A DNA stretch of 21,084 nt from an uncultured Duganella sp. (GTDB lineage: Bacteria; Pseudomonadota; Gammaproteobacteria; Burkholderiales; Burkholderiaceae): assembly GCA_946482635.1 (NCBI GenBank), contig CAMLSG010000080.1, positions 1-21,084 on the forward strand, in the 5' to 3' direction. Both the position numbers and the translations under genes were made by a program. Positions 2,537-4,400 of the stretch are shown one piece after another; the first letter of the stretch is position 1; each line of letters starts with the position of its first letter. The notes beneath the pieces are model-generated. The model was not told the DNA's origin, did no database searches, and was given only the letters and a program-made list of their open reading frames with translations.

Positions 2537-3412
2537 ATGAATACCGGCATGCTGTACGCCGCAGGCGCTTTCCTGTCCTGGGGCCTGTTCCCGCTGTATT
2601 TTCACGCAATTAAAGATGTGCCGGCGTCCGAAATCCTGGCGCACCGCATGGCTTGGTCGCTGCTGTTCCTGATGCTGGTCCTGGCCGTGCGCCGCCAATG
2701 GAAGTGGCTGCCCCAAGTGTTACGCCAGCCCAAAGTGGTCGGCAGTTTCCTGGCCAGCGCCTTCCTGCTGAGCGCGAACTGGTTTGTGTATATCTGGGCG
2801 GTAAATAACGGCCATGTGGTGGACGCCAGCCTGGGCTACTTCATCAATCCCCTGGTGAATGTGCTGCTGGGCATGCTGGTGCTGAAGGAAAAGCTGCGTC
2901 GCGGGCAGTGGATTGCGATCGGCGTTGCCGCCACGGGCGTGGCCTGGCTGACCTGGCAGGCCGGCCAGATCCCGTATATCGCCCTGGTGCTGGCCCTGAG
3001 CTTTGGCGCCTATGGCCTGTTGCGCAAAACTGCGGCGCTGGCAGCCCTGGAAGGACTGTCTTTTGAAACCCTGATCCTGTTCCCGCTGGCGGTGGCTTAC
3101 CTTGGCTGGCTGGTGGTCCACGGCCAGAGCGTCTTCCTGAATGCGGAATCGGACAGCACGCGCTGGCTGCTGGCTGCCGCCGGCCCGACCACGGCGATCC
3201 CGCTGCTGCTGTTTGCGGCCGGCGCGCGCCGCATTCCGATGTCGGTGCTGGGCATGCTGCAATACATGTCACCATCGCTGCAGATGCTGCTTGGCGTGTG
3301 GGTCTTCCACGAAGCGTTTTCCTCGACCAAGCTGGTAGGTTTCCTGTTCATCTGGAGTGCATTGGCCATCTACATGCTGGAGGGTTGGTTGACCAGCAGA
3401 AAGGCGAGTTGA
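2537..3412 (+). CDS. rarD: RarD-type EamA family (DMT) transporter
   Basis: Inner-membrane protein of 291 aa with about ten hydrophobic segments, the two-repeat layout of the drug/metabolite transporter (EamA) superfamily. The N-terminus (YAAGAFLSWGLFPLYFHAIKD, then EILAHRMAWS) and the NWFVYIWAVNNGHVVDASLGYFINPL segment at about residues 75-102 are characteristic of RarD, which is close to 296 aa in E. coli. The substrate is not established; the old name comes from a chloramphenicol-sensitivity phenotype. The ATG at 2537 fits the family N-terminus although the upstream ribosome site is poor. It is divergent from kup across about 134 bp of AT-richer DNA that must hold both promoters. No terminator is obvious after the stop. 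Confidence 0.9.
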   Translation: MNTGMLYAAGAFLSWGLFPLYFHAIKDVPASEILAHRMAWSLLFLMLVLAVRRQWKWLPQVLRQPKVVGSFLASAFLLSANWFVYIWAVNNGHVVDASLGYFINPLVNVLLGMLVLKEKLRRGQWIAIGVAATGVAWLTWQAGQIPYIALVLALSFGAYGLLRKTAALAALEGLSFETLILFPLAVAYLGWLVVHGQSVFLNAESDSTRWLLAAAGPTTAIPLLLFAAGARRIPMSVLGMLQYMSPSLQMLLGVWVFHEAFSSTKLVGFLFIWSALAIYMLEGWLTSRKAS

Positions 3413-3518
3413 GTGTCGGAAAACTTTACACGGTTACCTCTTTGATAATTCGTCTTTCCTCTTCTCAATAAAGCTTACCCTATAAGAATCAATGACCTGG
3501 ATAAACTTGTTGGCATTC

Positions 3519-3535
3519 AGGCACGATAGTTGCTT
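3519..3535 (+). promoter_or_regulatory. Sigma-54 (-24/-12) promoter
   Basis: AGGCACGATAGTTGCTT matches the RpoN consensus TGGCACG-N4-TTGCW at every position except the first. The invariant GG (3520-3521) and GC (3532-3533) are separated by exactly 10 bp. The predicted start site is near 3545, about 9 bp before AGGAG (3554-3558) and 21 bp before the ATG at 3566. Spacing, strand and position all fit a functional promoter for the following gene. Confidence 0.8.
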
Positions 3536-3553
3536 AACTTCTCGTTCCAACAC

Positions 3554-3558
3554 AGGAG
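3554..3558 (+). promoter_or_regulatory. Ribosome binding site deciding the 3566 start
   Basis: AGGAG lies 7 nt before the ATG at 3566. The in-frame ATG at 3530 lies inside the sigma-54 promoter, upstream of the predicted transcript start, so it cannot be used from that promoter. Confidence 0.75.
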
Positions 3559-3565
3559 AAGAAGA

Positions 3566-4351
3566 ATGGTAAGCAAAAAGTTTCTGGCAGGTATCGCCGC
3601 ATTGGTCTGCGCTGCTAACGTACATGCTCTTCCAATGTCCCTGACCAAGAACGTTGCCGCAGGCGACCTTCTGGTTTCCGGTACCGGCAAGACTTTCGAG
3701 ATCAATGTGAACGACTTGTTGGCTGGCAACAGCCTGAGCAGCAACTCGATCTCGCTGGGGCAGTTGACTGTATTCGGCCACTCGGATGCTGTTTACCAAA
3801 CCCAGATCGACGCCTTTGGCAACTACAAATTCACCGGTACCCGCTCACATTTCAATGCGGGGGCCTGCAACCATGGCGTTTGCAGCGTAATCGACAATGT
3901 CTACACCAGGACCGGCAGCTCGTTTCACTACGACAATATCAGCGACACCATGAAGGTGACCGTTGGCGACTCGAGCGACAGCGACACCACTGGTTTGCAG
4001 CAACGCTATGAGCGTCCCTCGACAAGCGAGGACGGCAGGTCCGGCAGCGCACGTTGGGGCTGGAACATCTACGAAACCACCGCCGACGATTACTACCGTT
4101 CCTATAGTGGAGACCTGAGCGTCACCCTGGACCTGGACAGCAAGGCACTCAGCGACATCATCAAAGACGGCATCCTGAACCTGTCGATCTTTGGCGTCCG
4201 CGGCCAGTTCAACGTTGACAGCCTGCGCCTGGACCTGCTGGCCAACATGCCTGAGCCGGCCGACGACACCCAGGTGCCGGTTCCGACCAGCCTCCTGCTG
4301 ACCGGCCTGGGCCTGGCGGCACTGGGCACGATGCGCCGCCGCAAAGCATAA
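3566..4351 (+). CDS. Exported protein with PEP-CTERM-like C-terminal anchor
   Basis: A 261-aa secreted protein. The signal peptide is MVSKKFLAGIAALVCAANVHA with likely cleavage after Ala21. The mature part is polar, Ser/Asp/Thr-rich and predicted beta-rich, with one cysteine pair (C101, C106), and I recognise no catalytic domain. The C-terminus has the tripartite shape of a PEP-CTERM sorting signal: VPVPTS (237-242), a hydrophobic LLLTGLGLAALG helix, then MRRRKA. The usual VPEP motif is VPVP here, while a true PEP sits earlier at 229-231. PEP-CTERM proteins are processed by exosortase at the inner membrane and often accompany exopolysaccharide or floc formation. The gene is monocistronic, with a sigma-54 promoter in front and a strong terminator behind. 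Its function beyond being surface or matrix associated is unknown. Confidence 0.82.
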   Translation: MVSKKFLAGIAALVCAANVHALPMSLTKNVAAGDLLVSGTGKTFEINVNDLLAGNSLSSNSISLGQLTVFGHSDAVYQTQIDAFGNYKFTGTRSHFNAGACNHGVCSVIDNVYTRTGSSFHYDNISDTMKVTVGDSSDSDTTGLQQRYERPSTSEDGRSGSARWGWNIYETTADDYYRSYSGDLSVTLDLDSKALSDIIKDGILNLSIFGVRGQFNVDSLRLDLLANMPEPADDTQVPVPTSLLLTGLGLAALGTMRRRKA

Positions 4352-4373
4352 GCAGCAGCGTTGCACCTGAAAG

Positions 4374-4400
4374 GACCCGGCACTTGCCGGGTCTTTTTTT
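4374..4400 (+). terminator. Intrinsic terminator of the PEP-CTERM-like gene
   Basis: A perfect 8-bp GC-rich stem GACCCGGC (4374-4381) / GCCGGGTC (4386-4393) with loop ACTT is followed directly by seven T residues (4394-4400). It lies 22 bp after the stop at 4351 and separates this gene from ettA. Confidence 0.93.

What the first reader, a model, noticed from the sequence alone, without database searches (positions are those of the whole stretch)
3519..3566. Sigma-54 promoter drives the PEP-CTERM-like gene
AGGCACG-ATAG-TTGCT has the exact GG-N10-GC spacing, and it places the transcript start 9 bp before AGGAG and 21 bp before the ATG. Some floc-forming betaproteobacteria control PEP-CTERM genes through RpoN and the PrsK/PrsR two-component pair, as I recall, so this orphan gene probably belongs to that regulon. 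It also shows that the upstream in-frame ATG at 3530 is not the start.
Basis: partly seen in the sequence, partly recalled or inferred. Interest (0 to 1): 0.72.

Follow-up and report, generated by a model that had tools for sequence, protein, structure and literature searches.

The report
Sigma-54 switch before PEP-CTERM gene
A bacterial gene for a secreted surface protein is preceded by an already published type of on-switch (an activator site plus a sigma-54 promoter), and comparing about a hundred such switches points to a third part and a strict spacing rule that the papers we searched do not mention.

Summary
The site is real: AGGCACG-ATAG-TTGCT at 3519-3534, inferred start of transcription 3545, ATG 3566. 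One detail is wrong: the in-frame codon at 3530 is TTG. The pair is not chance (0 of 1000 shuffles) and is conserved in two Duganella orthologs. So the gene very probably belongs to the known PrsK/PrsR-RpoN regulon. The window's genome is not held; the closest relative has prsK, prsR, rpoN and exosortase genes. Scanning 61 genomes gave 113 modules, 94-96 before PEP-CTERM-like genes, nearly confined to PrsR genomes. Two regularities absent from the papers searched: the motif 1-to-promoter distance is quantised at about 11 bp (near 42, 52, 64, 75, 86, 96), and an IHF-consensus site (up to one mismatch) lies about 20 bp before the GG in 62 of 113. The window has a one-mismatch site there (3487-3499). 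A new member of a known kind; the three-part grammar is the new element.

The parts
3414..3430 (+). Motif 1, TGTCGGAAAACTTTACA: predicted PrsR enhancer (upstream activating) site; one base separates it from the TGA (3410-3412) of the upstream EamA gene
   Evidence: matches the pattern of 113 modules in 61 genomes scanned; conserved in L001 and L002; fits the 17-nt, TTTACA-ending motif 1 of Haft et al. 2006 as described in the text (the logo figure is not held)
3487..3499 (+). Candidate IHF site AATCAATGACCTG (WATCAANNNNTTR, recalled consensus, one mismatch), 20 bases before the GG
   Evidence: AATCAA and the CT after it kept in L001 and L002 within a diverged spacer; IHF-consensus sites at this distance enriched in 113 modules. 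Orientation is opposite to the commonest one
3519..3534 (+). Sigma-54 -24/-12 promoter AGGCACG-ATAG-TTGCT (GG 3520-3521, GC 3532-3533)
   Evidence: conserved as AGGCATG-GTAA-TTGCT (L001) and AGGCATG-ACAA-TTGCT (L002)
3545..3545 (+). Inferred transcription start
   Evidence: Inference from the usual distance to the -12 GC; not mapped
3554..3558 (+). Ribosome-binding site AGGAG
   Evidence: GGAG kept in both orthologs
3566..4351 (+). PEP-CTERM-type secreted protein, 261 aa, tail VPVPTSLLLTGLGLAALGTMRRRKA
   Evidence: TIGR02595 21.7 bits, over its cut-off of 16; PF07589 19.1 bits, under its cut-off of 20.7; 46 relatives
4369..4400 (+). Intrinsic terminator: GC-rich hairpin (fold 4369-4398) with a run of seven T at 4394-4400, so the gene is probably a single-gene unit
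   Evidence: Fold -22 kcal/mol, z -4.75, 0 of 200 shuffles as good; the simple terminator scan did not list it

Best explanation
The intergenic region 3413-3565 is an enhancer-dependent sigma-54 control module. Phosphorylated PrsR (an NtrC-type AAA+ activator with partner kinase PrsK) binds motif 1 at 3414-3430; IHF probably bends the spacer at about 3487-3499; the looped PrsR contacts RpoN-RNA polymerase waiting at 3519-3534 and starts a transcript near 3545 that encodes only the PEP-CTERM protein, which would be exported and sorted by an exosortase as part of the extracellular matrix. Shown by sequence comparison: the sites, their conservation, their link to PEP-CTERM genes and to PrsR genomes, the spacing rule of about 11 bp, the enriched IHF-like site. 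Inferred: protein binding, bending, the start point, RpoN dependence, sorting, and the presence of prsK/prsR in the window's own genome.
For: Site and geometry; motif 1, the AATCAA block and the -24/-12 element are conserved islands in the alignment with L001 and L002. Whole module in 0 of 1000 window shuffles. In the two Duganella genomes 27 of 83 examined PEP-CTERM hits have an exact module against 0 of 2000 control windows (one search gave 84 hits, 82 over cut-off; the one not fetched is below it). A pattern scan of 61 genomes gave 113 modules (95 + 14 + 4); 94 of 113 are followed by an ORF with a PEP-CTERM-like tail by a regular expression, 96 with a looser one; the reversed pattern gave 1 match. 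Of 60 genomes searched for PrsR, a module is in 18 of 21 with PrsR over cut-off and in 1 of 39 without, p 2.5e-11, relatedness not corrected for. The closest relative's genome G001 has prsR, prsK and epsB, exosortase, one rpoN and ihfA. Published: Haft 2006, Xia 2023.
Against: No transcript or mutant data. The window's genome is not held. The spacer (89 to GGC; 88 to AGGC) is about 3 bp longer than the centre of its band (84-87 without its two orthologs) and near the top of Haft's range (32-92, mean 62.8). The -24 begins AGG, where 71 of 93 de-duplicated modules have TGG and 11 have AGG. The tail has PVP in place of PEP, and PF07589 is below cut-off. 56 of 83 PEP-CTERM hits in the two relatives lack an exact module, and 3 of 21 PrsR genomes have none.
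Confidence: 0.92

Rival explanations
1. A real sigma-54 promoter, but driven by another NtrC-type activator than PrsR.
For: These genomes carry many other activators of the class (23 scored matches to the PrsR model in G001, of which 2 are over cut-off). One genome without a PrsR over cut-off (G033) has a module, before an acyltransferase gene.
Against: The modules track PrsR: 18 of 21 genomes with it, 1 of 39 without, and 94-96 of 113 precede PEP-CTERM-like genes.
Confidence: 0.05
2. Chance -24/-12 look-alike; the gene is transcribed from an ordinary sigma-70 promoter or by read-through from the EamA gene.
For: A match this good occurs in 106 of 300 shuffles of the whole window.
Against: 0 of 3000 shuffles of the intergenic stretch, 0 of 1000 for the module; conserved in two orthologs while the spacer diverges; the simple sigma-70 scan lists no site between 3380 and 3566.
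Confidence: 0.03
3. The module is as described, but the IHF-like element is not an IHF site: it is part of PrsR's own or another protein's site, or an AT-rich flexible stretch. (This rival concerns the third part only, so its odds do not add to the others.)
For: The spacer is AT-rich (63% against 50% upstream). The window's copy has a mismatch and the less common orientation. IHF binding was not tested. In 29 loci outside the family draw the enrichment is weaker.
Against: Exact consensus in 43 of 113 spacers against 1 of 113 in equal stretches upstream and 1 of 113 downstream, shuffle mean 0.9; it keeps its distance to the promoter although the distance to motif 1 varies.
Confidence: 0.25

Closest known systems
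PEP-CTERM cis-regulatory module (motif 1 + sigma-54 motif 2) with PrsK/PrsR, Haft et al. 2006, PMC1569441 (passages and section 7 read)
   Same: 17-nt motif 1 ending TTTACA, spacer within 32-92, sigma-54 motif 2, PEP-CTERM gene as a probable single-gene unit
   Different: Spacer at the long end; a word search of the main text finds no IHF and no helical spacing
pepA promoter of Aquincola tertiaricarbonis RN12, Xia et al. 2023, PMC9850573 (part 1 of 5 and passages read)
   Same: PEP-CTERM gene with TGGCAC / CTGCTT -24/-12 elements, mapped start, RpoN1-dependent transcription, predicted enhancer upstream
   Different: There pepA lies upstream of prsT; here the gene is between an EamA transporter and an ABC ATPase. 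The words IHF, integration host and helical do not occur in its main text
IHF-assisted sigma-54 enhancers such as NifA promoters and Pu (review PMC7057263, passages; PMC4740811, passages)
   Same: Activator site, IHF bend, -24/-12; tolerance of helical-repeat insertions or deletions reported for qrr enhancers
   Different: Activator (PrsR) and target regulon; not seen for PEP-CTERM genes in the searches made

Membership tests
Haft PEP-CTERM cis-regulatory module | 17-nt motif 1 ending TTTACA | tested here: met
   3414-3430 TGTCGGAAAACTTTACA; published logo not seen, only its description
Haft PEP-CTERM cis-regulatory module | Spacer 32-92 nt to motif 2 | tested here: met
   88 nt (3431-3518); range
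Haft PEP-CTERM cis-regulatory module | Motif 2 with -24 GG / -12 GC | tested here: met
   3519-3534
Haft PEP-CTERM cis-regulatory module | prsK and prsR in the same genome | not testable with these tools
   Window's genome not held; both present in the closest relative G001
Sigma-54-dependent promoter | Expression requires RpoN | not testable with these tools
   No expression data
PEP-CTERM protein | C-terminal PEP-CTERM sorting domain | tested here: met
   TIGR02595 21.7 bits, cut-off 16; but PF07589 19.1 under 20.7, and PVP in place of PEP
Sigma-54 enhancer of the IHF class | IHF binds between enhancer and promoter | tested here: inconclusive
   One-mismatch consensus at 3487-3499, kept in two orthologs; binding not tested

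The most novel reading that the evidence does not exclude
PEP-CTERM genes share a three-part control grammar: PrsR box, an IHF bend about 20 bp upstream of the -24 GG, and a sigma-54 promoter, with the PrsR box allowed only on one face of the DNA helix (steps of about 11 bp from 42 to 97). Spacer length can then vary between genes only by whole helical turns, which gives a precise way to find the regulon in any genome.
Probability: 0.75. Interest if true: 0.5.

Novelty: new member of a known kind. Interest (0 to 1): 0.4.

Why it matters
It places a little-described secreted protein in a known matrix/floc regulon and gives its likely start codon and promoter. The comparison turns a loosely described motif pair (spacer 62.8, s.d. 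10.6 in Haft et al.) into a tighter rule with a candidate bend site. This is directly testable with reporter constructs, and lets the PrsR regulon, including members that are not PEP-CTERM genes, be predicted with few false positives.

Tried and rejected
GG-N10-GC alone as evidence: rejected, matches equal expectation. One-mismatch -24/-12 alone over the whole window: weak. Sigma-70 alternative upstream: none listed by the simple scan. Loosening the module: with one mismatch in each motif 35 of 83 PEP-CTERM hits and 5 of 2000 control windows; with two and one mismatches 40 of 83 and 23 of 2000, with added spacers of 23-32 and 56 outside the main bands; so the strict pattern was kept. Viral contigs: no relative of the protein. 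The first phasing test included the window and was repeated without it. With the central band 61-66 left out, the periodicity in the remaining 38 de-duplicated modules is weaker but still above all 5000 jittered sets (R 0.652, null maximum 0.613). The class-level test used bands that cover 18 of the 31 possible gaps and a flat null, so it is the less strict of the two. In 29 class-level loci the PEP-CTERM link was weaker by a crude longest-ORF test: by eye 12 of 29. One literature search gave no paper.

Full report
1. Observation. The sequence at 3519-3534 is AGGCACG-ATAG-TTGCT, with GG at 3520-3521 and GC at 3532-3533. The in-frame codon at 3530 is TTG, not ATG. It is the best -24/-12 match in the window, the only one with at most one mismatch among 43 with up to three. 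By itself that is modest: 106 of 300 shuffles of the window have one as good, and GG-N10-GC is at chance level. In the intergenic stretch 0 of 3000 shuffles have one.

2. The missed partner. At 3414-3430, one base after the stop codon of the upstream EamA gene (PF00892), stands TGTCGGAAAACTTTACA. Haft et al. 2006 (PMC1569441; passages and the section on the conserved DNA read) described, before 99 of 167 proteobacterial PEP-CTERM genes, a 17-nt motif 1 ending TTTACA, a spacer of 32-92 (mean 62.8), and a 17-nt sigma-54 motif 2. They proposed motif 1 as the site of the cognate activator, PrsR. The window fits: spacer 88, and a strong terminator behind the gene. The full module occurs in 0 of 1000 window shuffles.

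3. Conservation. The orthologs in Duganella sp. Root1480D1 (L001, 74%) and Duganella sp. CF458 (L002, 41%) keep motif 1, the -24/-12 element and an AATCAA block between them, while much of the spacer diverges. The first 36 bases from ATG 3566 are nearly identical in the three. In L002 the 3530 frame runs into a TAA, which supports ATG 3566.

4. The gene. TIGR02595 matches above cut-off (21.7 against 16); PF07589 is just below. The tail has PVP, not PEP. There are 46 relatives; those listed with an organism are from Duganella, Pseudoduganella and Massilia. The window's own genome is not held, so prsK, prsR and exosortase could not be sought in it. The closest relative's genome (G001) has two PrsR genes above cut-off, PrsK and the XrtA-type glycosyltransferase beside one of them, exosortase, one rpoN and ihfA.

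5. Regulon test. In the two Duganella genomes 27 of 83 examined PEP-CTERM hits carry an exact module, against 0 of 2000 control windows of equal length. The pattern TGTCGNNNNNNYTTACA-N20..112-GGCMYNNNNNNTGCW, run without regard to genes over 61 genomes (60 of the tool's family draw, which includes G001, plus G002), gave 95 + 14 + 4 = 113 matches against 1 for the reversed pattern. Of the 113, 94 are followed by an ORF with a PEP-CTERM-like tail by a regular expression, 96 by a looser one. A module is in 18 of 21 genomes with PrsR above cut-off and in 1 of 39 without (p 2.5e-11, relatedness not corrected for). The modules before other genes include two before acyltransferases (PF01757) and two before proteins with a PAS fold and a weak Cache-domain match.

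6. Helical spacing. The 113 gaps from motif 1 to GGC (window left out) fall at 42-43, 50-53 (one at 56), 61-66, 73-77 (one at 70), 84-89, 96-97, and one at 105. The best period is 11.2 bp, R 0.793; in 93 de-duplicated modules R 0.774; the jittered nulls reach at most 0.428 and 0.456 in 5000. A further draw of 369 genomes from the class, G001 among them, gave 58 with a match, for gaps 51-81 only. In 106 places from the 57 genomes other than G001, 104 fall in the bands 50-54, 60-66, 72-78 (18 of the 31 possible values), and R at 11.2 is 0.783, against at most 0.364 in 20,000 flat random sets; with one place per genome R is 0.746. The window's 89 is about 3 bp beyond its band's centre; of the 113 only its two orthologs share it.

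7. IHF-like site. The IHF consensus (WATCAANNNNTTR, recalled) occurs exactly in 43 of 113 spacers, against 1 of 113 in equal stretches upstream of motif 1 and 1 of 113 downstream of motif 2; with up to one mismatch 88 against 9 and 7. Within 16-24 nt of the GG: 30 exact, shuffle mean 0.155, maximum 2 in 200 sets; 62 with up to one mismatch, mean 2.7, maximum 7. The peak is the reverse orientation ending 19-20 nt before the GG, with minor peaks near 10 and 31. In 29 class-level loci the effect is weaker but present: 4 exact (mean 0.044, maximum 2 in 500 sets) and 8 with up to one mismatch (mean 0.98, maximum 6). The window has AATCAATGACCTG at 3487-3499, one mismatch, forward orientation, 20 nt before the GG; both orthologs have a one-mismatch site at the same place.

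8. Comparison with what is known. The promoter and its PrsR partner are a new instance of the module of Haft et al. RpoN dependence of a PEP-CTERM gene was shown in Aquincola (PMC9850573, part 1 of 5 and passages). Word searches of both main texts find no IHF and no integration host; 'helical' occurs in Haft only in a reference title and not at all in Xia. A search for PEP-CTERM with 'integration host factor' listed three papers, judged incidental from titles, term counts and abstract openings only. A search for at least two of PEP-CTERM, enhancer and sigma54 found 529 papers; among the 25 listed, one further PEP-CTERM paper appeared, on Thioalkalivibrio, whose passages do not treat the promoter. 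IHF bending and helical phasing are known for other sigma-54 enhancers (PMC7057263, PMC4740811, passages). The library lacks most subscription journals, and supplements and figures were not seen, so an earlier description cannot be excluded.

9. Verdict. What is added is motif 1 in the window and a three-part, helically phased grammar for the regulon.

Noticed in passing
L001 5001-5783 against protein P0006: The database protein of Duganella sp. Root1480D1 (ASD58_27475) is 238 aa and covers 91% of the window's 261 aa, so its annotated start probably lies 23 codons too far downstream and drops the signal peptide (inference).
   Followed up: no
G001:C3:18437-18677 (L035): Two complete modules lie back to back on opposite strands, their motif 1 copies 47 bp apart, before two divergent PEP-CTERM-like genes.
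   Followed up: no
L155, L171, L145; L153, L147; L154, L167: Genes without a PEP-CTERM tail behind the module: a small ORF alike in three genomes (no Pfam match for L155), acyltransferases (PF01757), and PAS-fold sensor-like proteins; possible further regulon members.
   Followed up: partly
G001:C50:201746-203074 and G001:C45:67626-68954: G001 carries two PrsR paralogs above cut-off, raising the question of whether they divide the regulon.
   Followed up: no
window 4369-4400: A strong terminator hairpin was not listed by the simple terminator scan.
   Followed up: yes
G033:C48:129511-129604 (L147): A module in a genome without PrsR above cut-off, before an acyltransferase gene; either a diverged PrsR or another activator.
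   Followed up: partly
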